Shown here in pieces: positions 38,626 to 61,870 of a stretch of DNA of 64,000 nt (the stretch's first letter is position 1; every line of letters starts with the position of its first letter). The stretch is taken from NCBI GenBank assembly GCA_903910585.1, contig CAIWAH010000183.1, positions 23,446 through 87,445 of the forward strand, in the 5' to 3' direction. Position numbers and translations under genes: made by a program. This stretch comes from an uncultured Verrucomicrobiota bacterium. GTDB lineage: Bacteria; Verrucomicrobiota; Verrucomicrobiia; Limisphaerales; UBA9464. Under the pieces are notes generated by a model, which saw only the letters and a program-made list of their open reading frames with translations, did not search any database and was not told where the DNA came from.

Positions 38626-41600
38626 CTAGGGATTCGGAATCTGGATGACCCGGTAATAGATCGTGCCGGACGACAGGTAGTTGGTGGTGACGTTCATCGG
38701 CGCGAACGGAATAAGGGCCAGACCGAAGTCGCCGGTCACCACCGCCGGCTGAACTTCCGGCCGCCACACCAGCGGCGTCGCACTCAGATCGGGAGTCGTC
38801 TGAACCTGATAGAGTTCACCCGGGACGGCATTCCACGTGATGAATGGCGTCTGGCCGGCAGCGGTGGGGAAGTTGTAGGTAATCACCGTGGGAATGTCGC
38901 TGACCAGCAGACCATTCTGGCGGGAAGCGGCGCGCACCGTAAAGGCAACCGCGTTGGTGGTCACCGCAGGCAACCGGACCTGCACAAACCACGTCCCTCC
39001 CATTTGCGGGAACTGGGCATCGGTGGCGACGATGACTTCGTTCTCCAACCCGGGCTTGAGGTTGCGCAGCACGGTTGCGCTCTGGTCCGGCGGGTTGTCC
39101 TTGGAAACGAACAGGTCGGCATCTCCATCCAGACCGTAGAGCTCGAACAGGATTCGCGAGGTAAAATCGAAGGGCACCTCGAAGCGGTAGAGCAGATTCG
39201 TCGGACCGCCCGAAACCAACTCCGGCTGTGGCACGGAATCGACGAGGAATCGGATATTGTTGTCCGGCAACGTGAAGTTCGCCACCACCGTGTAAGTGAC
39301 CGGCAAGGGATCCCGAGGCACCACAGCGAGGAACCAGCGGCCCGGATTGAGCAACTGGGGCGCGCGATCGCCGGAAAGGACGATTGTCTCATCCGCCGTG
39401 CCAGCGTTGGTGCTGGCGAATTCGAACGAGTCGGCCGTCGGCAACGGCAGCCCGGCACGGACGTAAAGGTCCACGTTGCCCGAGAGGTTGGTCAGGCCAA
39501 GCGCGAGGGACGACACCTGGTTGGTGATGTCGATGTAATAGTAGTCGATGACCCCGCTGTTGGTGATTCCGCCGTTGGCGGGAACGCCGTTGGTCAGGGC
39601 GGCCACATTGGCGAAAACCTCCAGCGCATAGATCGTGTAAACCAAGCGGTTGGTCGGATTGGGGTCCGACGGATAGACGCCCAGATACCAGGTTCCCGGT
39701 GACAGCGGCACGGGCACGCTCAGCGGATCAATCTCGATGGACTCACCGGTCAGTCCGACATTCGTGCTCGCATAGTCGAACGTGTTCCGACTCGGCAAGC
39801 TGGGGCCCTGGCGAACCACCAGATCCACGTCCCCGGTCAGATTGGAGATCGAGAAGCGGACACCCAACGCATCCGGAGACACGTCGAACGCATAGTAATC
39901 CATCATTCCCTGATTCGCGTTGGTCGCCGTCACCGCCACATCGTTGGTCAGCACGACGATGGGCAGACCGAAGTCCACCCGGATGGTGAAGTCGTTGTTC
40001 TGGCCCGGCAGGGCGTTTTGGACGCCAAGGTAATAGCGCTGCCCGGGACGCAGTTGCGGCAGGACGTTGGTGAACAGCGTCGCTGATTGCTCCACATCCT
40101 GAACGCCGGTCAGCAGGTAGTAATCGTCGGTCTGCAGGCCGTCGGGCAATCCGGTTTGGCTGTAGAGAAGATTCAACGGTCCGCCGGAAACACTGACGAG
40201 CGAATTGGTGACCGCGTAAACCTCAGGCGGAACCTCCACGATGAAATAGGTAATCGCACTGCCGGAAACGTTCGTGGAGAAGGGAACTCCCTGGGTGAGC
40301 CGGTAAGCGGGCGGATTCGTCGGCGCAAAGGTCAGCTCCATCTGCCACTTCAGGATCTCCCCCACCTCACCGGCTCGGCTATCCGTGACTTCCAGACGCC
40401 ACTGCCCGACGGCCGATCCCTTGGCGAGCGGCCGGAGCGGTTCTTCGGGGACGTAAACCCCGGTGGGCTCCTCGACCAACCGGATTTCGTCCAGGAACGT
40501 CTCTGCTGGGCGCGGTGAAGCCGGGGGCGCCGCCACGATCACCCGGGGCGGTTGCAGGTAGTTGGTGCCGGGACGGACGACCACAATCCGGCTGACCGCC
40601 CCGTTTTCAATTTCCGCCCGGGCGGTGGCTCCGGACCCGCGGAACGGAAAGCCGATCACCTGAAACCGCACCGCAGGCGCCGTTTCGTAGCCCGCACCAC
40701 CGTCAACCACGTTGATGCCCGTGATGCGCCCAACCGCATCCACCGTGGCTACCGCCGTGGCTCCGCGGGTTGGATTGGTCTCACTGGCCGGATTGGCGAT
40801 GTCGAAGGTGATCGTGTTCGTCGTGGCCTGCACCACGGCAGCGTTCGTTTGCCAATTGTCTTCCGCCAGGAAGCTCGAAACCTCCGTCCCATCCGCAAAA
40901 ACCAATACGGGACTGGCCTGTCCCGCCGACAGCGGAACCTTCCGGTAACCGACACTCAGCGTGTAGAACCGTCCCGGGACCGTGGAGAACGTGCGGCGAA
41001 TCCGGGTTCCGACGCCGCCGCCCAAGTTGGGGAACAGCTCGATGCAACTGGTCCCCGTGAGGGCGTCATCGGGGAAGAAATCCCACTGCACCGTATTGCT
41101 GACCACCGTCCATCCATCCACCAGTTCCCCGACGGTGTAGAACTGGTCGCCGCTCCGTGGTCCGTCAAAGGTCGATGCCGCAATCAGGCGCGTGCGGGTA
41201 TCGGTCACGAATGGCGGTTCGGCGAACTTGATGACCTGGGAATTGAGATTGGTCAGTTCGGAGAAGACCGCGAACAGCGTGTTCGTGACGGTCGCTCCCG
41301 GGGTGACCAACCCGCCCGCAGAGGCAACCCGAAGATCCACCTGATTGGTTTCCAGCACCGAAATGTTGGTCAAAATCACACTGAACGATCCCGGCCCGTT
41401 CCCGATGGGCGGCGGATAGTTGGCCACCAACACCGGTCCGACATGACCGTTGGTCCCGGACCATCCGGCAATGATCACCGGATCGTTGGTGCCGGCATTG
41501 ACCCAACCTTCAAGCGTGAAACCGGCGCCGCGGACGACATCCAGCGGCTGGCCGGGTTCGGGCACCGGGGCAACAGCAGTGCCGCTGAGCGAAATTGCCT

Positions 41601-44600
41601 GCCCAATCAGTCCCGGGGCAGCTCCCCCGCCGGAAAGCGCCAGGTCCCGGTCGGCGATGAGCTCGTTGCCATCGCCTTCAAACGGCCACAAGGCCACCAA
41701 ACCGGCTTCGGCCTCAAAAGCACCCTTGCCCACCCCGTCCTCCACCCCATAGCGATAGAGGTCGCGGATGTTGTCGGCAGTCAGCACGCGGCTCCAAAGC
41801 CCGAAATCATCCAGCACGACCGGCCGGGAGTTCCCCGTGGTGCCGTCAGTGCCGAATTGCAGCGAGTTGGTCGTGTCCGGCAGGAAGTCCACGAAGTTCT
41901 GTTCCGCCACCCGCAGGCCGTTGACGTAGATCTGGGCGCGTCCCGAGCTTCGTTCGAACGTCATCGCCACATGGGCAAACACCCCATTGGTGGTGATCAG
42001 TTCGCGCCCAAAGGCGACGGCATTCGTCCGTCCGCGGTTCTCGACCAGCACTGTCGAGTCTCCCTGCGGGTTGATCAGACGTATGGACAGATCGGAAAGC
42101 CGGGGATGCTCCATCCGCAGCCCGGCACCGATGGCGGTCACCGGACGCGAGTCGTCCACGGTCACGGCGGAGTAGGTCACCGCATGATCGGTGAGGGGCA
42201 AATTGATCGGGCCTGACTCAAAATTTTTCGTCAGCCGGCCATCCAGCCCCCGTTCCACCCGCGCACGAATGCGATAGCAGACCTCGAAGCCGTTCGGGTT
42301 GTAAACCGCCACAAAGTAGCGGCCGGGAGTCAGCGGCGGGACATCGCGGATGCCAATCGTGAGCTCGCCTCCGCCGGGCGGGAAGACGGTGGCATACTTG
42401 TCGTTGTTCGCCGGATTGACCAAATCGGGGAACGCCTCGCGCCGGACATAGATTTCCAGCGGGCCGTCGAGGGTTTCATTCTGACGATTGGTCAGCGTGA
42501 TGGTCAGCCGGGTCGCATCTGCCGGGATGTTGATCACCTCAAGTTCGATGAGGCGGGCCCGGACACAACGCTCCACAAACTGGGCCCCGAAATCATTCGG
42601 CATCAGCTGAAGGTCGAGGTAGTTGATCGCGCCGGAATTGCCGAACGCATTGTCCACCGAATTGAAGAACCAGGCGCCGCCGCCGGTGAGACCCATGAAT
42701 TCATTGAGCGTCCCGGGACCGTCCGATGGCCGGGTGTTGGAAAGCCGCGAGTAGTCGCCGCTGCCGGAGTCGTCGTAGCGCACGTAAACGTTCGCCCCCG
42801 AGTCGAGGTCCAGCAGGGGCCCATGGTTGTTCAGGACCGTGGACAGCGAGCGCAGCTCCAGTTCTCCCAGCAAATCCCTGAAGTTGTCGTGCGTGGTGGA
42901 CACGGTCGGAGTCACCCGGCGCAGTTCCTGACTGATGAGGCTGATGGCCAGCCATTGGCCCACTCCCGGGTTGGAGGGCGTGCCGTCCGACAGCTGCCGA
43001 AGTGAAATCGCCAGGGGATGCGGAAACCCATTCTCGTCAAGCGACGTAAAGGGCTGATCGGTGCTGAGACCGACGAAGGCGAATTCGCCTCCCTGCTGGT
43101 CCTCTGATTTGACCCCAACGTAGAAAACGACGCCCTCGCCCAACGGCACGTTGGTAAATGTCAGCAGCTCGGTTGCATCCCGGTTGCGGGATTTCGCAGC
43201 CCCCGCCACGGCGACCGGATCCAACGTCAGCATTCCCGGATCGCGGGAGACATACAGGTCAAGATCGGGCCCGTTCGTTCGGGTTCGGGACAGGTTGGAG
43301 TCAGGCAGGCTGGGAAAGACCACGAACGCGACGTTGCTGCCGCTGGTCAGGTAGTTGGTGACCGTCTCGGCGACACCGTCCGTCACGGTCCCATTGGTCG
43401 TGATGCTGAAGACGTTCAGGTTGGTGAACGGGACGTTCGTGAAGGTGAAGAAGCGCCACTGGTTGGTGGTGCCCCGCTGATCCCCGACCAGCGGCGAATT
43501 GGCACCCGCCTTCTGATTGAACAGCGCCACCCCGTTGGTGATGCCCGCCGGCGCCGTCGGAGACGCGATTCCCAAGGTGATGGCGTTCACCAACTGCATG
43601 TCCTTCACCTCGCCTGCCGTGTCACCTTCGGCCAACTCGGCATCGCTGGAGATCACCAGCGAGAAATCCTGGGCCACTTTGGAGGGGTTATCCCAACGGG
43701 CATTGACGTTGACCCGGTGCGCGACCACCCAGACGGCGTATTCACCCGCGGTCGGGCTTTGCAGGATGATCCGCTCCACGTTGTTGACCCGGTCCGGTCC
43801 CACGGGTTCATTGGTGGTCTGGGCCCGCGAAAATCCCGTGCCCGGAGAGAGGTCATTCCCAAAAAACACCTCCCCGCTGACGGTGTTGGACAGCACCAGA
43901 TCGAGGTCGTTGACCAATTTGGTGGACGCGGCCGGATTGCCCGGAGGATCCGTCCAGACCAGTGACAGGCGAAGCGGGGCGTTGGTCTGTGTCACGTCCA
44001 GCTTCAGAGTCGCCGCTTCCCCCGTCGCCAGACCGGACCCCTCAACTGCGGCCAACGGCTTGTCGTCGCCGGTTACACCAATGCCCGAACGCAACGCCCG
44101 CGGCAGCGTGGGCATTCCCCAGCCGCCGAAATTGAACGACTCCTTGGTGTCCGGTTCGTAGGTTTCACTCGTGGCCACCGAACCGTTGATCAGCAAAGCC
44201 TTGTAGGTCGCAGCGGACGGAAACACCCCGACCTTCTGCTCAAAATACTGCTGCATCTGGGCCAGCAAACCGGAAATCGCCGGAGCCGACATCGAGGTGC
44301 CCGATTCAAAGCGGTAGGCGGGCGCATTGGATTTTTCCAGCTCACCAAAAAGATAGTAGGAGTCGGGGAATTCTCCGGTAAAGGGATCGGCCGGATACTG
44401 GTTGGTGATGTCCCACCGCGAAGAGCGGGCCGACAGGATAAACGATCCCGGTGCCACGACGTCAGGCTTGAATCGGCCCGAGCTCCCCTCGATTTCCACA
44501 CCGACATTGCCGCGGCTGGAGAAGCCGGCGACCTGATGCGCGGTGTCGGTATACGGCATCAGCACTTCATTGGTGAAGTAGGTGGTGTTGGTCTCCGAAT

Positions 44601-46182
44601 AGCCGCGGTCGGGAAACGCAGTCGAACCGATCTTCACGGCCACAAAATTGGTGTCGTAAACAATCGCGTTGGTGATGTTCCGCGGACTCTCCAGCGCACC
44701 AACGGTGATCACGTTTTTGGCGTTGCCGGGTGAAGCGATGGAATCAGGAATCCCACCCACACCGGCATCTCCACCGGAGCCCTCATTGCCGGCACTGAAC
44801 ACATAAAGGATCGGCTGGTCGCCACGCTCTCCGGGAAGAGCGTCCCGCACCGCGGCATCGTAGCTGGCCGATTTCGAGGTATATTCGCGCGTCGTATAGC
44901 CCCAACTGTTATTCGAGATGAGCGGGCGGTTCCGGGACGCACGGCCCGGCGCCTTGGCCGCCTCTTCCTGCAAATAGGTGTCGCCGGAGGGCGGCCCCTG
45001 GATCAGGTCCACCGGCAAAACCCAAAGGCGCGCCTTCGGGGCCCGGCCCTGAACGCTCGCACCATTGGTCGAACCCTGCGGGGTGCCGGCCAAGGTGCCG
45101 GACGCGGTGCCGTCGCCCGCGATGGTTCCGGCCACGTGGGTGCCGTGACCGTCGAAATCGGCCAGCACCGTCGCGGCCAGCTCCGGAATTGTGCTCACGC
45201 GCCCGGTCAAATCGGGGTGCGTTTGGTCAACCCCCGAGTCGTTGATGTTGACCAGCACCCCGGAGCCATCGAGTTCAAGATAGGGTCCGGTGTTGTCGAG
45301 GTTGGTCACCGATCCCAGGGCCACGCCGCTGAGGTCGTTCGCCAGCGCCCGCGGCGTCCACCGCTCGACCATCAGGACTCCGGGCAACCGGGCCAGTTCG
45401 GCCACCCGGTTTTCCAGCCCGGCAACCGTCACCAACTGACCAAACGGTCCCCGTTCCCGGAACACCTCGGTGCCGCCCAACGCCGCAATCGCGGGCATGG
45501 TGTTCGCCGGATCCACCACCGTGACGATCAGTTGCTGCCGCTCAGGCGCAGAATCGCCGGCGAGCGTTTGATCCAACAGTTCGGGCTCCAGTTTGAATGC
45601 TGGCGCGAATGGCAAAACCGCCGCCACTTCCGGACTGCCCGCGGCCTGCTCCATCGCGGAACGGCTGCCGCGGACCAAGTAGGCGTTGTTGGGAATGTAG
45701 GAGACGATTTCGAGCCCCGCGTCCCGCAGTTGCCGTCGCAGCGACTCGGTCAGAACGCTCCTCGACTGCACCACGTAGGCTCCCGGATCCTCGCCGGCTT
45801 CCAAGCCAGCCGGAAGCTGAAGCGGAACTCCATTCGCGGTGTCCACCAAAGCATTGCGCAGGTTCAGCGCCCGATCATTTCGCACCAACTCATCCACCGC
45901 GGCGGCCGTGTTGCGGAAACGGTTGGTGAACTTCGCGTCAGGAAAGGCCCGCGCCTGACCCGGTTGCCACGGCTCGACGGAAACCCATTTGTGAGCCACC
46001 GGCACGACCGGAGCCTGCGGAAGTGCGACCGCCGGTTCGGACTTCGGTGCGACCGCGGCCTGGTTCTCCCCGGCATCCCGGCTCCGGCGATGGGCGACTC
46101 GCTCGCCTGCCCGCCAGGTCAGCAGACCGCACAGCAGAACCAACCCGATCAGGGCAAATCGTTGACGACGGGGAGCAGGCAT
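38626..46182 (-). CDS. Giant subtilisin-family (S8) surface protein, 2518 residues
   Basis: An N-terminal membrane anchor or signal (about residues 8-24, RFALIGLVLLCGLLTW) is followed by a propeptide-like region to about 290. The S8 protease domain (about 300-660) has an intact triad: Asp315 (INDSGVD), His346 (GHGTHVAG) and Ser630 (GTSMSAP). The rest is beta-rich: LamG/concanavalin-like domains, a P/proprotein domain split in two by an insertion, the IDAVGRIT-type module shared with the FGE-like protein, and at least four PPC-like pre-peptidase repeats near the C-terminus (NLTGDVDLVVRQG, NLSGNVDLYVRAG, GLDGDADLFVSKD). It lies 24 bp after the Verru_Chthon A gene and is transcribed with the pseudopilin cassette, which suggests that it is the cargo or surface client of that system. 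Confidence 0.9.
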   Translation of the reverse strand: MPAPRRQRFALIGLVLLCGLLTWRAGERVAHRRSRDAGENQAAVAPKSEPAVALPQAPVVPVAHKWVSVEPWQPGQARAFPDAKFTNRFRNTAAAVDELVRNDRALNLRNALVDTANGVPLQLPAGLEAGEDPGAYVVQSRSVLTESLRRQLRDAGLEIVSYIPNNAYLVRGSRSAMEQAAGSPEVAAVLPFAPAFKLEPELLDQTLAGDSAPERQQLIVTVVDPANTMPAIAALGGTEVFRERGPFGQLVTVAGLENRVAELARLPGVLMVERWTPRALANDLSGVALGSVTNLDNTGPYLELDGSGVLVNINDSGVDQTHPDLTGRVSTIPELAATVLADFDGHGTHVAGTIAGDGTASGTLAGTPQGSTNGASVQGRAPKARLWVLPVDLIQGPPSGDTYLQEEAAKAPGRASRNRPLISNNSWGYTTREYTSKSASYDAAVRDALPGERGDQPILYVFSAGNEGSGGDAGVGGIPDSIASPGNAKNVITVGALESPRNITNAIVYDTNFVAVKIGSTAFPDRGYSETNTTYFTNEVLMPYTDTAHQVAGFSSRGNVGVEIEGSSGRFKPDVVAPGSFILSARSSRWDITNQYPADPFTGEFPDSYYLFGELEKSNAPAYRFESGTSMSAPAISGLLAQMQQYFEQKVGVFPSAATYKALLINGSVATSETYEPDTKESFNFGGWGMPTLPRALRSGIGVTGDDKPLAAVEGSGLATGEAATLKLDVTQTNAPLRLSLVWTDPPGNPAASTKLVNDLDLVLSNTVSGEVFFGNDLSPGTGFSRAQTTNEPVGPDRVNNVERIILQSPTAGEYAVWVVAHRVNVNARWDNPSKVAQDFSLVISSDAELAEGDTAGEVKDMQLVNAITLGIASPTAPAGITNGVALFNQKAGANSPLVGDQRGTTNQWRFFTFTNVPFTNLNVFSITTNGTVTDGVAETVTNYLTSGSNVAFVVFPSLPDSNLSRTRTNGPDLDLYVSRDPGMLTLDPVAVAGAAKSRNRDATELLTFTNVPLGEGVVFYVGVKSEDQQGGEFAFVGLSTDQPFTSLDENGFPHPLAISLRQLSDGTPSNPGVGQWLAISLISQELRRVTPTVSTTHDNFRDLLGELELRSLSTVLNNHGPLLDLDSGANVYVRYDDSGSGDYSRLSNTRPSDGPGTLNEFMGLTGGGAWFFNSVDNAFGNSGAINYLDLQLMPNDFGAQFVERCVRARLIELEVINIPADATRLTITLTNRQNETLDGPLEIYVRREAFPDLVNPANNDKYATVFPPGGGELTIGIRDVPPLTPGRYFVAVYNPNGFEVCYRIRARVERGLDGRLTKNFESGPINLPLTDHAVTYSAVTVDDSRPVTAIGAGLRMEHPRLSDLSIRLINPQGDSTVLVENRGRTNAVAFGRELITTNGVFAHVAMTFERSSGRAQIYVNGLRVAEQNFVDFLPDTTNSLQFGTDGTTGNSRPVVLDDFGLWSRVLTADNIRDLYRYGVEDGVGKGAFEAEAGLVALWPFEGDGNELIADRDLALSGGGAAPGLIGQAISLSGTAVAPVPEPGQPLDVVRGAGFTLEGWVNAGTNDPVIIAGWSGTNGHVGPVLVANYPPPIGNGPGSFSVILTNISVLETNQVDLRVASAGGLVTPGATVTNTLFAVFSELTNLNSQVIKFAEPPFVTDTRTRLIAASTFDGPRSGDQFYTVGELVDGWTVVSNTVQWDFFPDDALTGTSCIELFPNLGGGVGTRIRRTFSTVPGRFYTLSVGYRKVPLSAGQASPVLVFADGTEVSSFLAEDNWQTNAAVVQATTNTITFDIANPASETNPTRGATAVATVDAVGRITGINVVDGGAGYETAPAVRFQVIGFPFRGSGATARAEIENGAVSRIVVVRPGTNYLQPPRVIVAAPPASPRPAETFLDEIRLVEEPTGVYVPEEPLRPLAKGSAVGQWRLEVTDSRAGEVGEILKWQMELTFAPTNPPAYRLTQGVPFSTNVSGSAITYFIVEVPPEVYAVTNSLVSVSGGPLNLLYSQTGLPDGLQTDDYYLLTGVQDVEQSATLFTNVLPQLRPGQRYYLGVQNALPGQNNDFTIRVDFGLPIVVLTNDVAVTATNANQGMMDYYAFDVSPDALGVRFSISNLTGDVDLVVRQGPSLPSRNTFDYASTNVGLTGESIEIDPLSVPVPLSPGTWYLGVYPSDPNPTNRLVYTIYALEVFANVAALTNGVPANGGITNSGVIDYYYIDITNQVSSLALGLTNLSGNVDLYVRAGLPLPTADSFEFASTNAGTADETIVLSGDRAPQLLNPGRWFLAVVPRDPLPVTYTVVANFTLPDNNIRFLVDSVPQPELVSGGPTNLLYRFEVPFDFTSRILFELYGLDGDADLFVSKDNPPDQSATVLRNLKPGLENEVIVATDAQFPQMGGTWFVQVRLPAVTTNAVAFTVRAASRQNGLLVSDIPTVITYNFPTAAGQTPFITWNAVPGELYQVQTTPDLSATPLVWRPEVQPAVVTGDFGLALIPFAPMNVTTNYLSSGTIYYRVIQIPNP

Positions 46183-46206
46183 AGACGCAGCAGGCGGAGG
46201 AAATTT

Positions 46207-49200
46207 TCAGGGAGTCTGGTAAAGGATCCGGTGATCCTCGACCCGGGTGGTCGGATTGACGGTGGAGCCCTCAAACCGCAGGAGGGTCTTGGTGGCCACC
46301 TCACCGGTGACCACGTAATTGGTGACGATTCCGTAGAACGGTCCCGGCCGCAGGTAGAACGAATTGGGCGCGGGCTTCAGCGACTGACCGTATGCGTAGA
46401 TGGTGACCAGCGGTTCGTCCGCCCGCAGCAGCGACAGGATCTGCTGGGGCAATCGTTCCACGACCTCATCGGTCACCAGATTTGCGCCGGCATCGGCCAC
46501 CACAAACGGAGCCCGGTCCGAGAGGGTGGGCACACTGAGAATCGCCCCGAGGTTGGTGAACGTGCCGCCGGGAGCGATCGGACCGGGAATTCCCGACGCC
46601 AGCGCGTTGGTGGTGGAGATCACTGACAACAGACCGGGCACGACCACCCCGTTGTTGGTGTAGCCGGAGATCACCTGCGCCACTTCGGGAGAATTCGGCT
46701 GCAGAATCAGCGCCTTGGGATCGTTGGGCGACGTGCGGTTGTCGAGCACCGGCACCCCGGAGAGCACCGCGGCCCACGAGGCCAGGTTGGTCTGGTTCAC
46801 CGCGAGCAATCCCTTGGCCGCGTTGTCGTTGATCGCCGTGGTGAAGAGGTCGAGCAGCTTCCAGTCGCTGATCGGATGGGTGTTGGCGTTCCCCGCCCAC
46901 GACGCCCAGTCGTTCATCTCGCCATAGAACAGCGCCAACCAAGGCGCCCCATCGAGCCCGTTCTGCTGCCGCAGATCGGCCACGGCCGACTTCAGGTAGA
47001 AGGTCTGCCACGGAGTGCCCCGATGGACTTTGCCCAGCCAGCCCAGATTCGCATACGAAGCATGCTCCAAATCCGCCGGCGCCCCGGGGGTTTGAACCAG
47101 GAATCGCCAATTGTCCGGTGTCGCGATCTGCGGATCTTTGAACGCAAGGTTGTTGCGCACATAGTCCGCCCCGGCAGTCGCCTGGGCCCCCAACTGGGGC
47201 ACCCGTCCCCACGGCGACCACGCCACCTGATACCGGTGTGGCTGAGCCATACTGGCTTTGCCGGTTGCCGGACTGGCGACAATTTGCTCGGTCCAAAAAT
47301 TGGTGGTCAACGTGTTCGGCCAACCCGAGGACGCCCGGAAGCCGACCGGACCGGTCACATAGTTGACCCACCGGCCGTTCTCAAAGTGCCAGTTGTTCGG
47401 CCAGGCGCTCCCGTTCTGGAGCAGGCGCACGCCATTGCGCTGCACTTCAGCGGCGTAGGCCCCGGGAAAGCCCGGCGACGCCAGTGCGACGGCCGTGTAG
47501 CCAGGCAGGAGGTCGTCCTTGTGGTAGTGAACCAACGGATCGTTCGCCATGCGGCGATCGGTGAACACGATCACCGGAGAAGGGTTGAAACCGACCTGAG
47601 CGGTGAGCCCGCCGTAGGTCCGGCGCAACGTGTCGATCGAGCTCCCGAAAATGCTCGGGCGGTTGGTTGAGTAGAGGAAGAAGTTGAGCCCGTCGACCGC
47701 AAGATTGCGGTCGGCGATCCTCACCCCCTGACCGCGCGCATCCCGCCACAGGAGGTCATAGTTGCCCTGCCCCAAAAACGATCCCAGCGACATCGCCAAC
47801 TGGTTGGTGATGCCCATGGTGCCGCCGGCCGCGAGGCGGTTCGTCATCCAGAAGCGGGACATCTCGCCTCCGGGCCGCTGGTCGCCGGAGGTTCCGGCGA
47901 TGGAAATTCCACCGGGCCCCACCTGGCCGCCGAGGTAGCGGGTGAGGTTCGTCTCGTAAACCACGCTCTCCATCGAGACCACGTCCAGCAATCGCTGCGG
48001 ATTCGCGGTGGTATAGACCGCAAAGATCAGATGGTTGGTCACCGCCAGCGCTAGCGCGGGCAGGCTGCCGACCTCCACATATCCGGCGTTCGTCGCCGAA
48101 GCCGGGAACGTCCGCCGATTCACGGGATCGAAAATGACATCGGCGAGCGTGTTCGTTGTCCGGAAGCCCACCACCTCTCCCGCTTTCCAGGTCCCCTTCG
48201 CCAGATCCCGGAAGGTCATCTGCCCCTGGGCCGGCGGAGCGAGGACCGGGGCGAGCGTGCCGTTGGGATTCTCCGCGTAGAGCGCATACCGGTTCGTCTG
48301 CCAGATCTGCACGCGCACCGGGACTGGGAAGTCAAAACTGTAGCTGTTCCACGCCTCCGTTCCGAACGTGTTGTTCAACGTGAGGCGATACTGGGAAAAC
48401 GTCCGGAAGCCCCGACCGTTGGCTCCCGTGAAGGGCAACTGCCCCACCGGCATCGTGGCGTTCGCGTTCGGCTTGGTCACCATGAGTCGCCGGGTCACTT
48501 GCACGGCGGTTTGCCAGAATCCCTCGTTGAAATTGGGCAGCCCTTTCTTCGCCCCCACCACCCAGGGAACGCCGATGACGTTGAGGTCCACCGTCGGGGT
48601 CACCCGGCCGGGCAGGCCGCGGTTGCCGTTGCGCACGACCAGCAGCGCCTGCTCGGGAGTGAGCCAGCGTTGGTTGATCGGGTTCAGGTTCACAACCAGC
48701 TCATAATCGCCGATGCGCAGCACATCCGGCGTGCGGTCATCCACATAGTAGCGGGGGCGATACACGTGCGGGGCCTGCAGCCGGAACTGGTTGGTGCCGT
48801 TGCCGGCGGGCGTGCCCAGGTCATGGTTTTTGGGGGCGTTGGCAAAGTCGTAGATGTTGGCCGCCAACTGCAGCAACCGGTGGGCCTGAGAGTCGTAGGT
48901 GTAGTTGGTCAGGATACCATCCGGCGTCCGGACGGTCCCAAAGACCGGAAACCCGTAAGGAGCATAGCCGGTTTCGTCGCGGGCCACATTCCGGCCGATT
49001 TCCTGCGACCGGACAATCGGCAGACCGTTGGTGAACTCCGTCAGCAACAGCCGGTCGGCGGCGTTGGTGAACCAGTTCAACGGCGTCCACGGTTCGAGCG
49101 CCGCAATCGAAGCGTTCGCCGGACGGTCGCCGTTGGGATCGTGGGCGTAGTTGAGGTTCAGTTTCGCCCGCCGGTAATAGGTGGGTTGGTTGGTTCCGCC

Positions 49201-50628
49201 ATTCACGCGGCCGTAGGCGGAATTGAACCCGGACTCAAAGCGGGCGTCCGGCGAGTCGGTGCCAAGCTGCGCCAGCGCCCGGTAATATGTGTAGGTGTTG
49301 TAGGTGCTGTTGACGTGTTCATCCCGGAACGCGGCCTTCGCCAGGGTGGAAGTGGCCTGGGCGGTCAGCCGGTCGCCCAAGTCCAGACTTTCGTCGAAGA
49401 ACTGGTTGAAATCGGTGAACCGGCGACGCTCGTCCGACCCGGACCACGGCTGGTCGGTGGGGTCATTGTCGACCGACGCCTGAAGCGAGGGGAACACCAC
49501 TTCCGAGTAGGTCTGGATCACGGGACCGTTGGCGTAGTTGTCCACCAAGTCAGAACTGAGGCGGTCTCCCTTGGAGCTGCCGATGATTCCGAACTCGTAG
49601 CCAAAGAAACGCTCGGCGGTGTCGGGTCGCGTGGCGTTGCGCCGGAAGCGGAGCAGCCGTTCCGCATCGGAAAACGCCCGCCCGGTGCTCAACGTGGCGA
49701 CGGCCGTCGAATAGGTGAAATCATTCAGCTGCCAGACGTTCGTGTTCAGGGCCCGGAAGAAGGCGGCGGAATTGAGTTCCCAGGAGCCCACCCCCTGATT
49801 GCGGAGATATCCGCTCGGGACGACTGCCCCGAGTGCGGGCAGCGCTTCGGCCGACTGCGGCAGCTTGGCGGCATTGCCGAGGAAATTTGCATCCAGCGAC
49901 CGTCCGGTCGGCAAGATCACGTAGGCGAAACGACCGATGAACCGGTTGGTGCCGGAATGCGGCATGTCCGGATGCTCCAACACCCCGATCCACTCGGGAT
50001 CGCCCACAAACTGCTCGCCGCCCCAGGCCGCATTGGTCCGCCCCAACTGGTCGGTGATCGCCAGAAACCCGTTGGTGTCCGGGCGGCGGTTGCGATTGAG
50101 ATCGAGGTAATACCGGAACTCCCAGGGAAAGCGGATGTTGGAGTTCGTCTGCACGAACACCGGCGGCCGCGGGCTGTAGAAGAGGTTGCCCAGCAGTCCG
50201 GCATACGCCTCACGGTCCGGCCCACTGTTTCCCAGATCGAAGTTGAACGGCGCCAGCGCCCCGCGGTTTTTCGAGTAGCCCACGTTGGTGAGGCTGGCAA
50301 ACGAGCCGGTGTTCCAAAAGTAGCCGAGGCTGAAATTGGTGTTCTGGAAATTCGTCGAAACCATCAGCCCGTAGGCAAAGCGGTTCGAACTGACAAACAT
50401 CCGCCCGATGAGCTCGCCCTTGGCCCGGCTGACCGCGGTGTCCGCCAGCAGGCGCGCGTCAATCTGCTCCCCGTAGGCCGTAACCGACAGCCGCTCGCGG
50501 CGGCTCATGGCCAGGAACGCCACGGCGGTGATGGTCACCACCGAGAGCATGATCAGGGTGATGACCAGGGCCACGCCATCACGACGGCGGGACTCGGGAA
50601 TTCGGACCGCTGGAAGGGCGCAGTTCAT
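46207..50628 (-). CDS. Verru_Chthon cassette protein A-like large pseudopilin-locus protein
   Basis: A 1473-residue protein with a single N-terminal hydrophobic segment (DGVALVITLIMLSVVTITAVAFLAMSRRERL, about residues 17-47), then a very long extracytoplasmic part. The N-terminal pattern and the tail AYGEQIDARLLADTAVSRAKGELIGR recall PilX/GspK-type minor pseudopilins. Its size, the G-V-A-L-V-I-x-L start and its place in the cassette match the A protein of the four-gene Verru_Chthon cassette (TIGR02600). The start overlaps the C gene by 4 bp (ATGA). The extracytoplasmic part is rich in Asn, Thr, Tyr and Pro and has few cysteines. Function unknown; presumably the tip or scaffold of a pseudopilus. 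Confidence 0.85.
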   Translation of the reverse strand: MNCALPAVRIPESRRRDGVALVITLIMLSVVTITAVAFLAMSRRERLSVTAYGEQIDARLLADTAVSRAKGELIGRMFVSSNRFAYGLMVSTNFQNTNFSLGYFWNTGSFASLTNVGYSKNRGALAPFNFDLGNSGPDREAYAGLLGNLFYSPRPPVFVQTNSNIRFPWEFRYYLDLNRNRRPDTNGFLAITDQLGRTNAAWGGEQFVGDPEWIGVLEHPDMPHSGTNRFIGRFAYVILPTGRSLDANFLGNAAKLPQSAEALPALGAVVPSGYLRNQGVGSWELNSAAFFRALNTNVWQLNDFTYSTAVATLSTGRAFSDAERLLRFRRNATRPDTAERFFGYEFGIIGSSKGDRLSSDLVDNYANGPVIQTYSEVVFPSLQASVDNDPTDQPWSGSDERRRFTDFNQFFDESLDLGDRLTAQATSTLAKAAFRDEHVNSTYNTYTYYRALAQLGTDSPDARFESGFNSAYGRVNGGTNQPTYYRRAKLNLNYAHDPNGDRPANASIAALEPWTPLNWFTNAADRLLLTEFTNGLPIVRSQEIGRNVARDETGYAPYGFPVFGTVRTPDGILTNYTYDSQAHRLLQLAANIYDFANAPKNHDLGTPAGNGTNQFRLQAPHVYRPRYYVDDRTPDVLRIGDYELVVNLNPINQRWLTPEQALLVVRNGNRGLPGRVTPTVDLNVIGVPWVVGAKKGLPNFNEGFWQTAVQVTRRLMVTKPNANATMPVGQLPFTGANGRGFRTFSQYRLTLNNTFGTEAWNSYSFDFPVPVRVQIWQTNRYALYAENPNGTLAPVLAPPAQGQMTFRDLAKGTWKAGEVVGFRTTNTLADVIFDPVNRRTFPASATNAGYVEVGSLPALALAVTNHLIFAVYTTANPQRLLDVVSMESVVYETNLTRYLGGQVGPGGISIAGTSGDQRPGGEMSRFWMTNRLAAGGTMGITNQLAMSLGSFLGQGNYDLLWRDARGQGVRIADRNLAVDGLNFFLYSTNRPSIFGSSIDTLRRTYGGLTAQVGFNPSPVIVFTDRRMANDPLVHYHKDDLLPGYTAVALASPGFPGAYAAEVQRNGVRLLQNGSAWPNNWHFENGRWVNYVTGPVGFRASSGWPNTLTTNFWTEQIVASPATGKASMAQPHRYQVAWSPWGRVPQLGAQATAGADYVRNNLAFKDPQIATPDNWRFLVQTPGAPADLEHASYANLGWLGKVHRGTPWQTFYLKSAVADLRQQNGLDGAPWLALFYGEMNDWASWAGNANTHPISDWKLLDLFTTAINDNAAKGLLAVNQTNLASWAAVLSGVPVLDNRTSPNDPKALILQPNSPEVAQVISGYTNNGVVVPGLLSVISTTNALASGIPGPIAPGGTFTNLGAILSVPTLSDRAPFVVADAGANLVTDEVVERLPQQILSLLRADEPLVTIYAYGQSLKPAPNSFYLRPGPFYGIVTNYVVTGEVATKTLLRFEGSTVNPTTRVEDHRILYQTP

Positions 50629-51569
50629 TGCTGGGCGGTGCGCAGGGCGATGCGCTGACGGAAGACGAGGATGTTGGCGAAGTTCCGCGCGAGGAAACTG
50701 GCCTGCAACGATTCCGGCAGGGACCGGAACTGGGCCAGCAGGCGCGGCGGCATGATTCCCAGCTCCACTTCGATGGCACTGGGCAGGGCGGCATTGCCGA
50801 AAGTCGTCAGGTTCTCAACGTCCGGGCCGCTCAGATAGAAGGGCACAACGTCGGCCGGAATGTCATTGGTCAGCAGCACGGTGCGGTCCAACACCACTCC
50901 GGACGCGGAATAGGGAAACACGCGGAAGAACACCACCCCGTCGATCAGGCGGCTCGCGTTGGTCCGCACCGCGGCATCCGGGCGGTCAAATTCCCGCCAG
51001 AAATTGTTGAAGGTGCGGAAGGCCGTGCCGGGGCGGATCAGCGTGGACGGCGAGAATTCGTCCACCCGGCCGAGGCTGTTGCCATTCGAATCCAGCACGG
51101 GACTCGAGCCCGCCACCTCGTAATGATACAGGGTGCCGATGGCATTGGTCACCCGTTGCAGCACGTCGTCAGCGTCCGCGACAAACAGGCCGAAACCGGG
51201 ACTCACGCCCACGTCCGGCCGGCAGAGGAGAAACAGCTCGTGGAACGCCGAATCACGCGTGAAGTCGTCACCGATGCCATTGATCACGCTCTCGGGGTAG
51301 GTGCGACGAATCACCAGATTGTTGGTCACCGCGGGAACCCGGGTGGCCCACGCCTTTTCGATGTCCCGGGTGATCAGCTCCATCGCCGCCCGGCCGGCTT
51401 CGGAAACGTCCGACTGGCCGGCGTTGTTGCGCAGCGCCTTCTGGGTCTGGTCGAACATCGAGTAGAGCGCCAGCACCACGATGGACATCAGGCCCACCGC
51501 CACCAGCACCTCCAGCAATGAGAAGCCGGAATTCCGACGTTCACGGGGGTTGTAGAGGGGCGAATTCAT
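50625..51569 (-). CDS. Verru_Chthon cassette protein C-like pseudopilin (PilW/GspJ type)
   Basis: A 314-residue protein with a prepilin cleavage/methylation motif (NSGFSLLEVLVAVGLMSIVVLALYSMF, cleavage after Gly15, Glu at +5). The helix continues with MFDQTQKALRNNAGQSDVSEAGRAAMELITRDIEKAW, like PilW/GspJ minor pseudopilins. The remainder is a beta-rich globular domain. It overlaps the A gene by 4 bp and follows the B gene by 13 bp, and its place in the cassette fits TIGR02599. A prepilin peptidase would be needed for processing and is not encoded in this window. Confidence 0.85.
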   Translation of the reverse strand: MNSPLYNPRERRNSGFSLLEVLVAVGLMSIVVLALYSMFDQTQKALRNNAGQSDVSEAGRAAMELITRDIEKAWATRVPAVTNNLVIRRTYPESVINGIGDDFTRDSAFHELFLLCRPDVGVSPGFGLFVADADDVLQRVTNAIGTLYHYEVAGSSPVLDSNGNSLGRVDEFSPSTLIRPGTAFRTFNNFWREFDRPDAAVRTNASRLIDGVVFFRVFPYSASGVVLDRTVLLTNDIPADVVPFYLSGPDVENLTTFGNAALPSAIEVELGIMPPRLLAQFRSLPESLQASFLARNFANILVFRQRIALRTAQQ

Positions 51570-51582
51570 GCGCAGTGGGCCG

Positions 51583-52434
51583 TCATTGCAGGACCAGGGA
51601 GGCGGTGTTCAGCCGGCGCCGCACGATGCGGCTCTTGAAGATCAGGGCATTGCGTTCGCCCGGCAGGATGTGTTCGACCAACTGTCCGGCGACCTGGGTG
51701 TGATAGGACTTCTGGTTGTTGCCGACCCGGAATTCTCCGGCGGACTGGTAAATCGGCCACTGGAACGTGAGCCGGACGTCGTAAACCGGGCGCTGACCGA
51801 AATCCCGCGCCACATACGGCGGCTGCAGTTCCGGCCCCGCCGGCAACAGGCTGATCTCGGCGGTCACCTGATAACGGAAGGCGAAGTCGAGCCGGTCCGT
51901 CCGCGGCGTGCCCGTCGCCACCGGGCGCACTTTTTCATCCAGTGGCCCCGTGAACGCCCGCAGCTGGGCAATCACCTGGTTCGTGCCAAACCGATTTTGC
52001 CGGACATCCAGTTTGGGCAGGGACAGCAGCCCGACGATGTCCTCCGGCAACAGCTGGCGACCCGAAGGAACCTGATCCAAGGCCGCCAACGCGGAATTGG
52101 CCGGCCAATCGAAGAACCGCCCGCGGAACGCCGCGATGGTCGCCGCCCCGTTGGTCGGCTGGTGGGTCACCACGATGTAGTCCAGATAGTTGGTCAGCTC
52201 CTGATACCGCATCGAACCGCCACGGATGGCATCCAGCAGGATTTGCGCTTCCTGATCGATGATCGTGTCCTCGCGGTTCTGCTTCTGGACGTTCAGGCCG
52301 GTCGGCATCACGCCCATGATGGCCACCATCGCGATGGCCACGATGGCGATGCACAGGGCGATTTCGACCATCGTGAACGCCGCCGTTCCCGGGGCGGCCA
52401 CCTGAATTCGCCGGCTGGTTGGAATCAGTCTCAT
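51583..52434 (-). CDS. Verru_Chthon cassette protein B-like pseudopilin (PilV/GspI type)
   Basis: A 283-residue protein. After an unusually long leader (about 19 residues, MRLIPTSRRIQVAAPGTA), the hydrophobic stretch AFTMVEIALCIAIVAIAMVAIMGVM carries the prepilin motif with Glu at +5. The cleavage residue looks to be Ala (GTA-FTMVE), not the usual Gly. The helix continues with LNVQKQNREDTIIDQEAQILLDAIRGG. Its place and size fit TIGR02598. It overlaps the D gene by 4 bp. Confidence 0.83.
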   Translation of the reverse strand: MRLIPTSRRIQVAAPGTAAFTMVEIALCIAIVAIAMVAIMGVMPTGLNVQKQNREDTIIDQEAQILLDAIRGGSMRYQELTNYLDYIVVTHQPTNGAATIAAFRGRFFDWPANSALAALDQVPSGRQLLPEDIVGLLSLPKLDVRQNRFGTNQVIAQLRAFTGPLDEKVRPVATGTPRTDRLDFAFRYQVTAEISLLPAGPELQPPYVARDFGQRPVYDVRLTFQWPIYQSAGEFRVGNNQKSYHTQVAGQLVEHILPGERNALIFKSRIVRRRLNTASLVLQ

Positions 52435-53327
52435 TTCGTCTCCGGCTTGAAGAGTTTGGAACGCCCGGTGAGCGCCGCGATCCGGAAGATGCTGTTGGTG
52501 CCGTTGTTGACCGGTGTCTGCACATAGTCCAGTGGCCGCGAAAAATCAGGGCCGCCGGGGACCTTTGAATTGGGATCCGGCGTCGGCAGGCGGGGAACAA
52601 ACACGCTGCCGAATCCCAGGGTGAGGAACTGGTTCGTGGGAATGGCCTCGAAGTTATACAGCCGGCCCGTGGAATCGAACGCAACGCAGGGAAGGGCAAA
52701 CCGGGGAATCGCATCCACCGGATCGCCCAGCCGGGGCGCAATCGGGAATGGGAACAGGCCGGTGGGCAGCTGCGAGATCAGGCCATTGGGAAACTCGGAC
52801 ACGCGTCCCGCCGGAATCACGCAGACCATGTTCGTCGGGAAGACGATTCCATCCGGCAGCTCCCGCCAATCGGTCAGATAACGGGGCCGGCGGACACCCG
52901 GCTGTTCGCCGACCGAGTGTTCGGTGTAGATTGCGTAGCTGGTGTAAAGGCCGGCCACCGTGTTGGTGAACGCCCGCAGGGCCCGGTCCTTCAGCTCAGG
53001 GAGGCCGTTCAGCGTGGCCGAGGAGTTCAGCGCGTTGGCATGGGCCCGGAGATTGTCGGAAGCCGTCTGGAATCCGTTGTCCCCGATGGTTTGCGGGACC
53101 GCGAACACGAGATACACCAGCGCGCGGTTCTTGATCGCGTATTGGCGGGCCAACCCGATGTCATCGGCCATCTGCCGCTCCGCCGCCGCCAGGGCGTTGC
53201 CCTGACCAAATCCCTTGAACGCGGGCACGCTAAGCGCCGCCAGCGCCCCGATGATGGCGAGCACGATCAGCAATTCGATCAGCGTGAACGCCCGAATCGT
53301 GGAGGCGGTTGAAGTGCGACGGCGCAT
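52431..53327 (-). CDS. Verru_Chthon cassette protein D-like pseudopilin (GspH type)
   Basis: A 298-residue protein with the prepilin segment IRAFTLIELLIVLAIIGALAALSVPAF (Glu at +5; residue before Phe is Ala). A helix ALAAAERQMADDIGLARQYAIKNRALVYLVF follows, the GspH pattern of a pseudopilin with a large globular part. It is first in the D-B-C-A order on the minus strand and starts 31 bp after a GspG-like pseudopilin. It fits TIGR02596. Confidence 0.84.
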   Translation of the reverse strand: MRRRTSTASTIRAFTLIELLIVLAIIGALAALSVPAFKGFGQGNALAAAERQMADDIGLARQYAIKNRALVYLVFAVPQTIGDNGFQTASDNLRAHANALNSSATLNGLPELKDRALRAFTNTVAGLYTSYAIYTEHSVGEQPGVRRPRYLTDWRELPDGIVFPTNMVCVIPAGRVSEFPNGLISQLPTGLFPFPIAPRLGDPVDAIPRFALPCVAFDSTGRLYNFEAIPTNQFLTLGFGSVFVPRLPTPDPNSKVPGGPDFSRPLDYVQTPVNNGTNSIFRIAALTGRSKLFKPETK

Positions 53328-53358
53328 GGTCTTGCGGGGTGCGGGCTGCGGTCGGGTA

Positions 53359-54147
53359 TCAGCGCCAGCTGTAGATGTTGTCCTTGTTCACACCAACTCC
53401 CGGCTCGGAGGCAAAGTCGATCTTGCCGTCCTCACCCAGCGAGATGACCAGGGCGCTGTCTGAAATCGTCCGGGCTCCATTCGCGACGGTGCGGTTGTCG
53501 AAGGGATCCTTCACCCGGTTGTCGTAATCCAGGTCCATGATCACGATGTAGGGATAGCCCCACGGATCGCGGAAAATCATGTCCGCTTCGGAAATTCCGC
53601 CCGGCGAGATTCCCTTGGCCACCTTGGCGTTCAAATAGACCTGCTTCTGCGGATTCAGATCGTGGTTGAAATTGACGGCCTGGCCGCCGGCATCGTTGAC
53701 CACTGCGTAGGCAACGCCGGCGGTTCCAGGCCGGAACGTGTTCGCTTCCAGCGCTTTGTCCGTCAGAATGGCCATCAGTTCCGCATTGCTGACCTGCCAG
53801 GGCCTGTTCGAGAGGTTTTCCACGGCATTGTAGGCATTCCGTTTGGAACTCAGCACCTGAGCCCCGTTCTGGGAAGTGCCGTAGGTGAAGTCAGGCACCT
53901 CCGGAGTGACCGCCGCCCGGGTGTTGCGGGAAACCGGCAGCCGGCCGGTGGTGGTTTGGTAGGCCTTGACCGCCCCTACAATGTTGGCCGCGTCCACCTT
54001 CGCCTGCTTTTTTCGGGCATTTTTGGAAACCCCGCTGAGAGCGGGCAACAGCATCCCGGCAAGGATGGCGATGATCGCGATCACAACCAGCAGCTCAATC
54101 AGCGTAAACCCGCGCTGCGGACGACGGGAGGAGAGGGAGAGTTTCAT
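53359..54147 (-). CDS. GspG-like pseudopilin
   Basis: A 262-residue protein with a classic type II/IV prepilin start: basic leader MKLSLSSRRPQRG, cleavage after Gly13, then FTLIELLVVIAIIAILAGMLLPAL. The helix KNARKKQAKVDAANIVGAVKAYQTTTGRLPVSR and the later DPWGYPYIVIMDLDYDNRVKDPF are typical of the major pseudopilin GspG family, including the conserved DPWG. It lies 24 bp after another GspG-like gene and begins a run of same-strand pseudopilin genes. Confidence 0.92.
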   Translation of the reverse strand: MKLSLSSRRPQRGFTLIELLVVIAIIAILAGMLLPALSGVSKNARKKQAKVDAANIVGAVKAYQTTTGRLPVSRNTRAAVTPEVPDFTYGTSQNGAQVLSSKRNAYNAVENLSNRPWQVSNAELMAILTDKALEANTFRPGTAGVAYAVVNDAGGQAVNFNHDLNPQKQVYLNAKVAKGISPGGISEADMIFRDPWGYPYIVIMDLDYDNRVKDPFDNRTVANGARTISDSALVISLGEDGKIDFASEPGVGVNKDNIYSWR

Positions 54148-54171
54148 GGGGTGAGAAATTGGGCGGCGAGA

Positions 54172-54978
54172 TCAGTTCTTCCAGTTGCCGATGATGCGGC
54201 GCTCGCCTTTGACGACGATCTCCGCCCACAGGTCGAAGCTGTTCGGGTTGTTGGTGGGATTGGTGGAAACGTAGCGCCACGGGTTGAGACCGGGATTCGA
54301 GGCCACCGGCGGCGGAAAACGGGAATCGTTCAGCGGCCACGATATGCCGGAACCCTTTTTGCCGGAGGCATCGCCCGAGTGACCGACCGCCATCAGCTCG
54401 AAGTCCACATATCCCGCCGAATTGGTTGAGCGAAACAGCTCACACACCTGACCGTCCTTGAACTCCCGGCTGAACAGCTTGCGCTTGGCCTGGCGATCCG
54501 CCGCAGTCAGTGTCGCCCCGCCTGAACCCGCAGGTCTTGGCACCGCATTCACCAAACCTTCCCTGCCAGTCAGGTCATCGATCTTTGCCGAAAGAATCTC
54601 CGTTTCGTCATCCGCCGTGAAAAAGCTCGCCCGCTGGTTGTCCACCAGCGCTCCGGTAAGTTCGTAGTAGAGGGTGTTCAGGATGGGGTCCACCGCAGTC
54701 GTTGGCTGACCGTTGTAATTGGTCGTGTAGGCGTGATCCGGCGGATAGACGCCAAAGCGGGACTTGTAGGATTCGATCGCCGTCACCAACCCCGCAAGTT
54801 CGGCGCGGACCCTGGCCTCCTTCATCTTCGCCGAAGCCACCGGCGCCAGACCGACCACCATGCCCGCCAGCACCGAGATGATGGCGATGACCGTCAGCAG
54901 TTCGATCAGGGTGAACGCCCCCCGGCGACCGCCTTCCCGGCGGCCGCAATGGGCGGAGCGTTTCATGGCTGTAAACAT
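54172..54978 (-). CDS. GspG-like pseudopilin (second copy)
   Basis: A 268-residue protein; ATG 54966 is an alternative start that leaves a shorter basic leader. The prepilin motif is GAFTLIELLTVIAIISVLAGMVVGLAPVASA, preceded by a very basic leader (GRREGGRRG). The helix AKMKEARVRAELAGLVTAIESYKSRFGVYPPDH has the GspG look, and the tail ends in LNPWRYVSTNP and FDLWAEIVVKGERRIIGNWKN. The cleavage residue is Ala before Phe, as in the D and B proteins. It is the first gene of the pseudopilin-protease run and lies downstream of the toxin-antitoxin pair. Confidence 0.9.
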   Translation of the reverse strand: MFTAMKRSAHCGRREGGRRGAFTLIELLTVIAIISVLAGMVVGLAPVASAKMKEARVRAELAGLVTAIESYKSRFGVYPPDHAYTTNYNGQPTTAVDPILNTLYYELTGALVDNQRASFFTADDETEILSAKIDDLTGREGLVNAVPRPAGSGGATLTAADRQAKRKLFSREFKDGQVCELFRSTNSAGYVDFELMAVGHSGDASGKKGSGISWPLNDSRFPPPVASNPGLNPWRYVSTNPTNNPNSFDLWAEIVVKGERRIIGNWKN

Positions 54979-55015
54979 ACGCGGTGAAAAATGTGGGTTG
55001 AGCCTCGCGGAATTC

Positions 55016-55588: not shown

Positions 55589-55674
55589 GTTGCGACCTGT
55601 AAAGCCATAGCCAGTGCGGTGTAACTACTTTGTATTTACACGCGACTAGCTTTAGGCGTCAAACGGATTCCTAG

Positions 55675-55708
55675 AAAAAGAGCGGCCACCAGTTGTGGTG
55701 GCCGCTCT
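55675..55708 (-). terminator. Terminator of the pilus motor gene cluster
   Basis: Perfect 13-bp stem AGAGCGGCCACCA (55679-55691) with its complement at 55696-55708, 4-nt loop, and a T run on the minus strand (55675-55679). It follows the platform-protein gene stop at 55727. The 138-bp gap to the toxin gene holds nothing else. Confidence 0.93.
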
Positions 55709-61714: not shown

Positions 61715-61870
61715 AGGTCGATCCAATCCACCGTCCTTGCGGTGCCAAGCATGGGCGCCGGGGAACGAGTGCGGGTGAGTTAATGAACGCGAACAACGAA
61801 AGTCAAACGCTGAGCCCGAATCCGGTCTGTTTTCAGCCACTTACGGGAGACGGCCAAACATTTACACCCG

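What the first reader, a model, noticed from the sequence alone, without database searches (positions are those of the whole stretch)
38626..54978. Pseudopilin cassette transcribed together with a 2518-residue subtilisin-family protein
Six same-strand genes encode two GspG-like pseudopilins and the D, B, C and A proteins of the Verru_Chthon cassette. The last four are joined by 4-bp ATGA overlaps or gaps under 35 bp. The giant S8 protein starts 24 bp after A. Pilus motor genes lie just beyond. The cassette is known by name from sequence surveys, but to my knowledge has no assigned function. The linkage suggests a pseudopilus dedicated to exporting or displaying the giant protease.
Basis: partly seen in the sequence, partly recalled or inferred. 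Interest (0 to 1): 0.72.

Follow-up and report, generated by a model that had tools for sequence, protein, structure and literature searches.

The report
Giant protease built into pilus operon
Most sampled genomes of one bacterial order keep a gene cluster that joins the tip proteins of a hair-like surface filament, often with its motors, to a giant protein-cutting enzyme, which is likely carried at the filament tip, where it would cut proteins outside the cell.

Summary
The linkage is real and deeply conserved. Six pilin-like genes and a 2518-aa subtilase lie as described. The Verru_Chthon labels are only sub-cut-off, N-terminal matches. Fold and order instead show a type IV filament set, G-G-H-I-J-K: C matches solved GspJ, an ortholog of A matches GspK with a giant insertion. 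A giant S8 protein follows A in 96 of 100 loci fetched from one Verrucomicrobiota order (probably Limisphaerales); the other 4 contigs end within 634 bases. Asp, His and Ser are invariant where readable. None of 40 loci outside the order, 12 of them true Verru_Chthon cassettes, has this S8 nearby. PilC/B/T lie upstream in 34 of 49 loci with room. The pilin-S8 operon is headed by a BrnT-like/CopG-like pair (56 of 57) and a promoter overlapped by a palindrome found nowhere else in the genome. Best reading: a retractable filament whose tip is predicted to carry the protease, in the gene position PilY1 has elsewhere. Secretion as a pseudopilus substrate stays open. Display, tip binding and repression are inferred, not shown.

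The parts
59999..61840 (-). second PilB/GspE-type assembly ATPase
   Evidence: T2SSE + MshEN; PilB 600.4 vs cut-off 675.65, GspE 584 vs 630.25
58822..59928 (-). PilT-type retraction ATPase
   Evidence: TIGR01420 441.4 bits, cut-off 319.1
57121..58818 (-). PilB/GspE-type assembly ATPase
   Evidence: T2SSE 1.2e-136; PilB 617.4 vs 675.65, GspE 617.3 vs 630.25
55727..57097 (-). PilC/GspF platform protein
   Evidence: T2SSF 1.7e-67; best NCBIfam hit PilC 4.2e-123, below cut-off; GspF 381.8 vs 424
55679..55708 (-). terminator-like hairpin after pilC (13 pairs, then TTTTCT)
   Evidence: the number of such sites in the region equals the shuffled expectation, but this one has the longest stem; a comparable hairpin in 17 of 38 relatives
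55633..55662 (-). predicted promoter TTGACG-18-TAAATA
   Evidence: read from sequence; a -35 with at least 5 of 6 matches at 16-18 b in 36 of 39 regions, 1.6% in shuffles; not reported by the stricter scan
55620..55640 (-). palindrome TGTAAATACAAAGTAGTTACA, predicted operator overlapping the -10
   Evidence: only place in the 5.33 Mb draft genome at up to 2 mismatches; conserved upstream of the pair
55301..55588 (-). BrnT-like small protein
   Evidence: PF04365 E 3.7e-4, 21.2 vs 34.5 bits; conserved in 56 of 57 named loci with room
55016..55297 (-). CopG/ribbon-helix-helix protein, predicted regulator
   Evidence: PF12441 45 vs cut-off 28; 56 of 57
54172..54978 (-). GspG-like pilin 1
   Evidence: N_methyl 9e-6, GspG 3.9e-7 below cut-off
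53359..54147 (-). GspG-like pilin 2
   Evidence: N_methyl 2.9e-11, GspG 5.8e-12 below cut-off
52431..53327 (-). D: GspH/FimU-position minor pilin
   Evidence: TIGR02596 4e-10 and GspH 2.8e-7, both below cut-off
51583..52434 (-). B: GspI/PilV-position minor pilin
   Evidence: TIGR02598 5.1e-5, GspI 0.061; mainly by position
50625..51569 (-). C: GspJ/PilW-type minor pilin
46207..50628 (-). A: giant GspK/PilX-type tip pilin, no Glu5
38626..46182 (-). giant subtilase (S8) with P-domain, LamG-like and PPC domains
   Evidence: triad invariant; nearest solved: KP-43 1wmd and SubHal 5fax
37681..38619 (-). PfkB-type hexose kinase, 6 bp after S8; possible passenger of the operon
   Evidence: TIGR03168 235.6 vs 216.4; a homolog in 27 of 100 loci

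Best explanation
The locus encodes the assembly and retraction motors, platform protein, pilins and tip-pilin set of a type IV filament, followed in the same gene run by a giant subtilisin-family protease that is predicted to sit at the filament tip on the giant tip pilin A. Shown by sequence or calls: gene order PilT-PilB-PilC, BrnT-like/CopG-like pair, G-G-D-B-C-A, S8; the predicted GspJ fold of C and GspK fold of an A ortholog; loss of Glu5 in A; an invariant catalytic triad in S8; linkage of A and S8 across one Verrucomicrobiota order. Inferred: D-B-C-A (H-I-J-K positions) forms the priming tip complex; S8, in the gene position that PilY1 has after PilX, is inserted by its N-terminal hydrophobic segment, perhaps freed from it by removal of its propeptide, and binds A; PilB pushes it out through the secretin and PilT pulls it back, so protein substrates are cut at a distance or on contact. 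The CopG-like protein, probably with the BrnT-like protein, likely binds the palindrome over the promoter and sets expression of the whole pilin-protease operon.
Against: No A-S8 contact was modelled or measured. S8 has no PilY1 domain, and PilY1 is rare in the whole phylum (2 of 276), so its near-absence here (3 of 168 matched) does not show replacement. The S8 N-terminus is hydrophobic in 86 of 88, but a strict AxA follows in only 14 of 88, so a membrane-anchored enzyme is possible. Motor linkage is not universal: 14 of 49 named loci with 9 kb upstream have no PilC, PilB or PilT there. PilB and PilC score below T4P cut-offs and close to T2SS ones, and the genome also has a GspD over its cut-off. 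A/S8 presence is not perfect: 142 both, 11 A only, 7 S8 only, 8 neither; families f29 and f34 have at best weak A matches and no S8 mid-region. Foldseek alone gave no significant match for A, and the model is of an ortholog with pLDDT 73.
Confidence: 0.45

Rival explanations
1. The giant subtilase is a dedicated soluble substrate of a type II-like pseudopilus: A at the pseudopilus tip engages it in the periplasm and pushes it out through a GspD-type secretin.
For: Gene order equals gspG-H-I-J-K (E. coli K-12 order seen); A ortholog and C fold as GspK and GspJ; the nearer ATPase scores as high for GspE as for PilB; one genome secretin passes the GspD cut-off; subtilases with PPC domains are often secreted (recalled); in 14 of 49 named loci the motors are not next to the pilins.
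Against: PilT, which type II systems lack (recalled), is part of the linked motor set; E. coli gspK is followed by gspL and gspM rather than a substrate; no gspC/L/M family showed up in the Pfam scans of the larger frames of the locus, but none was searched for genome-wide.
Confidence: 0.27
2. S8 is an inner-membrane-anchored periplasmic protease that matures or recycles filament subunits (for example the giant A) and never leaves the cell.
For: N-terminal hydrophobic segment in 86 of 88 and lipobox in 0 of 88, strict AxA in only 14 of 88; co-occurrence with A.
Against: LamG-like, P- and PPC domains and a median of 2455 aa look like surface or secreted architecture; 7 genomes show the S8 mid-region without a detected A, though 4 of these matches are weak.
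Confidence: 0.18
3. Operon membership is inherited synteny with no physical or functional tie between S8 and the filament.
For: Order-level vertical inheritance keeps many neighbours; a pfkB homolog is also found in 27 of 100 loci.
Against: S8 follows A in each testable fetched locus, over 26 families by my count, mostly with short gaps, while the gene after S8 varies and the motors separate in 14 of 49 loci.
Confidence: 0.1

Closest known systems
Type IVa pilus minor pilin operon fimU-pilV-pilW-pilX-pilY1 (Pseudomonas, Myxococcus)
   Same: Minor pilins in H-I-J-K-type order followed by one very large non-pilin protein after the PilX-position gene; PilT present (PMC5979040 and PMC13190605 abstracts; the exact gene order is recalled)
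   Different: The large protein is an S8 protease with intact triad, not PilY1 (no PF05567); the PilX-position protein is about 1,200-1,800 aa; in 34 of 49 loci pilT/B/C stand upstream
Type II secretion pseudopilus GspG-H-I-J-K
   Same: Gene order and folds of C (GspJ) and an A ortholog (GspK)
   Different: PilT in the linked motor set; A carries a huge insertion (beta-rich region at model residues 550-865); a protease gene follows instead of gspL/M
Verru_Chthon cassette (TIGR02596, 02598, 02599, 02600)
   Same: Sub-cut-off N-terminal similarity; giant A protein
   Different: A over the cut-off occurs in 7 of 288 phylum genomes searched, all of other orders (of this order only the window's genome was searched with that model), and no S8 homolog in 12 of 12 such places
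BrnT/BrnA toxin-antitoxin modules
   Same: BrnT-like gene first, ribbon-helix-helix gene second; BrnA controls its own operon (PMC11980606 passages)
   Different: BrnT-like member below the Pfam cut-off; fixed in one place at the head of a filament operon in 56 of 57 loci
KP-43 and SubHal subtilases (1wmd, 5fax)
   Same: Match over residues 543-827, E 2e-29
   Different: About 430 aa against 2518 aa; not tied to filaments as far as recalled

Membership tests
Verru_Chthon cassette (TIGR02596/98/99/02600) | scores over the curated cut-offs | tested here: not met
   40.1/70, 23.5/51.4, 25.8/256.5, 32.8/332.3 bits
GspK/PilX tip pilins | GspK fold | tested here: met
GspK/PilX tip pilins | no Glu at mature position 5 | tested here: met
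   I 67, V 6, T 6, L 1 of 80 readable among 96
GspK/PilX tip pilins | NCBIfam GspK cut-off | tested here: not met
   14.5 vs 130 bits
GspJ/PilW | GspJ fold | tested here: met
GspJ/PilW | NCBIfam GspJ cut-off | tested here: not met
   24.7 vs 64.85 bits
Type IVa pilus system | PilT retraction ATPase | tested here: met
   441.4 vs 319.1; 168 of 168 order genomes over cut-off
Type IVa pilus system | PilB over cut-off | tested here: not met
   617.4 and 600.4 vs 675.65
Type IVa pilus system | PilQ secretin in the genome | tested here: inconclusive
   two Amuc_1098-type hits, 304.6 and 128.7 vs 750 bits, read from cut loci
Type II secretion system | GspD secretin in the genome | tested here: met
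   one hit 360.3 vs 351.35 on another contig
Type II secretion system | GspE over cut-off | tested here: not met
   617.3 and 584 vs 630.25
Type II secretion system | gspC/L/M partners | not tested
   no genome-wide search was made
PilY1 | PF05567 domain | tested here: not met
   no hit in S8 at E 0.1; none in own genome
Active S8 peptidase | Asp/His/Ser triad | tested here: met
   89/89, 89/89, 87/87 readable; activity itself not tested
BrnT/BrnA | PF04365 and PF14384 gathering scores | tested here: not met
   21.2 vs 34.5; 17.6 vs 26.1; PF12441 CopG_antitoxin 45 vs 28 is met
Surface display at the pilus tip | physical location of S8 | not testable with these tools
   needs microscopy or fractionation

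The most novel reading that the evidence does not exclude
One bacterial order has evolved a retractable pilus armed at its tip with a 2,500-residue active protease on a 1,500-residue GspK-type tip pilin, and drives it with a toxin-antitoxin pair turned into a dedicated regulator that has a single private operator in the genome.
Probability: 0.33. Interest if true: 0.88.

Novelty: new variant of a known kind. Interest (0 to 1): 0.7.

Why it matters
Tip proteins decide what a type IV filament touches and does; the well-described large one in this gene position is PilY1 (PMC13190605, abstract). A conserved protease in that position would make a pilus an enzyme-bearing tool, which could help these bacteria reach insoluble protein. 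The finding also gives a testable identity to relatives of the Verru_Chthon A and C proteins (GspK and GspJ folds), and shows an order-wide, fixed BrnT/CopG-like pair as a putative pilus regulator with a single operator, which a simple binding test can settle.

Tried and rejected
Verru_Chthon membership: rejected, sub-cut-off and N-terminal only. The CopG/BrnT genes as a stray mobile insertion: rejected, 56 of 57 named loci with room carry them in the same place, also the 14 loci whose motors lie elsewhere; none found by tblastn in 40 loci outside the order. PilY1 replacement argued from absence in the order: weakened, PilY1 is rare phylum-wide too. Separate S8 promoter: the scan gave one promoter-like site in 45900-57200, inside C, with 1.7 expected in shuffles; this neither finds nor excludes one. 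Terminator after pilC: clear in the window, but a script found a comparable hairpin in only 17 of 38 relatives.

Sequence search of solved structures with the C and A profiles: none, and one hit at E 0.09 to an unrelated protein. Foldseek with the A model gave no match under E 0.001, best rows arrestin and glycosidase beta domains; GspK came up only in the VIA second look at Foldseek's list. The S8 mid-region in 276 phylum genomes matched in 39, the window's own included; the others match mainly the barrel part just after S8. Operator patterns: 10 of 57 named and 4 of 18 other loci failed the full pattern, 6 of 57 and 2 of 18 the 9-mer core; several of these carry variant palindromes by eye, not counted. 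In one search two of 40 loci (L153, L171) printed no S8 field; one search repeated the search and found no hit in any of the 40. In one search the PilT count of 35 included one likely cross-hit (L256); one search gives 34.

Literature, all 10 searches, seen as listings with starts of abstracts unless said: 'Verru_Chthon' 0; Verrucomicrobia and pseudopilin 5; minor pilin, PilY1, PilX, operon, tip 36, 25 listed; Verrucomicrobia, type IV pili, subtilisin 1; PilY1, Verrucomicrobi, minor pilin 2; type IV pilus, subtilisin-like, tip, minor pilins 2, 1 listed; BrnT/BrnA terms 59, 10 listed; Amuc_1100 terms 2; Pedosphaera, pili, secretion system, protease 1; antitoxin, type IV pilus, minor pilin, ribbon-helix-helix 1. 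No listed title describes this locus; the library is open-access only, so absence is weak.

Full report
Observation. The window is on contig C183 of a 5.33 Mb, 411-contig draft genome. The seven genes lie on the minus strand at the stated coordinates with 4-bp overlaps D-B and C-A, 13 bp B-C, and 24 bp A-S8. N-terminal prepilin motifs are present in G1, G2, D and C by Pfam; B matches only pilin-type NCBIfam models. The Verru_Chthon models match D, B, C and A over 34-61 N-terminal residues and below cut-off.

The protease. S8 is 2518 aa with Pfam S8, two P-domain stretches, LamG-like and PPC domains. Four orthologs from other families share S8 plus P-domain, variably LamG and PPC. Nearest solved relatives are KP-43 and SubHal. 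Complete ortholog frames number 69, median 2455 aa, 67 of at least 1800; the shortest, 1225 aa in L050, is followed by an 1183-aa frame and is probably a split gene. Asp and His are invariant in 89 of 89 aligned rows (window included), Ser in 87 of 87 readable, Asn in 87 of 88.

Linkage. A was found in 47 of 50 family genomes and 153 of 168 order genomes. From those with listed coordinates and usable contigs I fetched 100 loci, by my count from 28 of 42 families; the choice favours stronger A matches. S8 follows A on the same strand in 88 of 96 loci by ORF walk, and by tblastn in 8 more of the 100 (two of these partial at a contig end); the remaining 4 end 634, 196, 166 and 21 bases after A. 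Titles there name Limisphaerales, Pedosphaera and Verrucomicrobia subdivision 3, besides odd labels (Akkermansia, one Omnitrophota), so the order is taken as Limisphaerales by inference. Across 168 genomes, A and the S8 mid-region are both seen in 142, A only 11 (G101 at a contig end, two of f29, six of f34, G156, G169), S8 only 7, neither 8 (Fisher p 2.3e-5, no correction for kinship). Outside the order, 12 places over the TIGR02600 cut-off and 28 N-terminal-only places show no S8 homolog by tblastn, 0 of 40.

Motors. PilT passes its cut-off and is in 168 of 168 order genomes. On the same contig and strand it lies 7.7-14 kb upstream of A in 43 of 83 genomes that had both an A coordinate I entered (86 of the 153) and a listed PilT row; rows were truncated and PilT has paralogs, so 43 is a lower bound, and one further genome had a PilT 20.6 kb downstream. 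PilC, PilB and PilT are all upstream in 34 of 49 named loci with at least 9 kb; one has PilC and PilB only; 14 have none, and all 14 still carry the BrnT/CopG-like pair. The genome also has Amuc_1098-type secretin hits below cut-off and a GspD over cut-off. Amuc_1098 is the PilQ of the Akkermansia pilus cluster (PMC10688800, passages). T4P and T2SS parts may therefore coexist, and I cannot exclude a type II role.

Head of the operon. Between PilC and G1 lie a BrnT-like and a CopG-like gene, present in the same place in 56 of 57 named loci with room, 60-86% identical for the CopG-like member. BrnA, a ribbon-helix-helix protein, controls brnTA in Brucella (PMC11980606, passages). Upstream is the palindrome TGTAAATACAAAGTAGTTACA (55620-55640), found at up to two mismatches nowhere else in the draft genome except as its own reverse reading. 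The 9-mer core is upstream of the pair in 39 of 39 aligned regions (38 relatives plus window), 51 of 57 named loci and 16 of 18 of the other set (overlapping genomes), with 0 of 2771 and 0 of 876 background windows. One locus, L227, lacks the pair and lacks the motif. A -35 box with at least 5 of 6 matches to TTGACA stands 16-18 b before the TAAATA inside the palindrome in 36 of 39 regions, 1.6% in shuffles, so the palindrome likely overlaps the promoter. Repression by the pair is inferred.

Mechanism and doubt. In minor pilin operons PilY1 is encoded with FimU and PilV-W-X, primes assembly and is placed at the tip (PMC5979040 abstract; PMC13190605 abstract and passages). S8 has the same gene position after a GspK/PilX-type pilin, and the linked motors include PilT, so tip carriage of an active protease is my first choice at 0.45. 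Its N-terminal hydrophobic segment with rare AxA (14 of 88) leaves room for a membrane-anchored enzyme, and the GspGHIJK resemblance for a secreted substrate. No experiment or complex model bears on this yet.

Noticed in passing
G000:C163:14871-15368 (locus L033): A secretin domain over the GspD cut-off lies in a 3964-aa open frame of the window's genome: a possible giant secretin-ended protein.
   Followed up: no
genomes outside the order, e.g. G191:C114, G243:C7, G225:C8, G234:C9: Open frames of about 3,800-4,500 aa match the barrel that follows S8; in the six genomes compared by coordinates (G191, G225, G234, G243, G261, G349) they lie on other contigs than the listed A-like gene.
   Followed up: partly
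L227: Natural exception: PilC is followed directly by G1, with neither the BrnT/CopG-like pair nor the palindrome.
   Followed up: partly
order families f29 and f34: Small genomes with weak or no A matches and no detected S8 mid-region: possible loss or deep divergence.
   Followed up: no
L148, L154, L155 and similar: In true Verru_Chthon loci a long open frame (1,556-1,634 aa in these three) ends just before A; not checked for being a real gene.
   Followed up: no
window 37681-38619: A PfkB-type hexose kinase starts 6 bp after S8; a homolog is found in 27 of 100 order loci.
   Followed up: partly
window 33008-35191: A 727-aa protein joins an immunoglobulin-like domain to a sulfatase-modifying-factor-type domain.
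   Followed up: no
L114, L118, L125, L128, L129, L137, between A and S8: Six of 88 loci have more than 250 b (350-555) between A and S8; in L128 the gap holds a 156-aa open frame.
   Followed up: no
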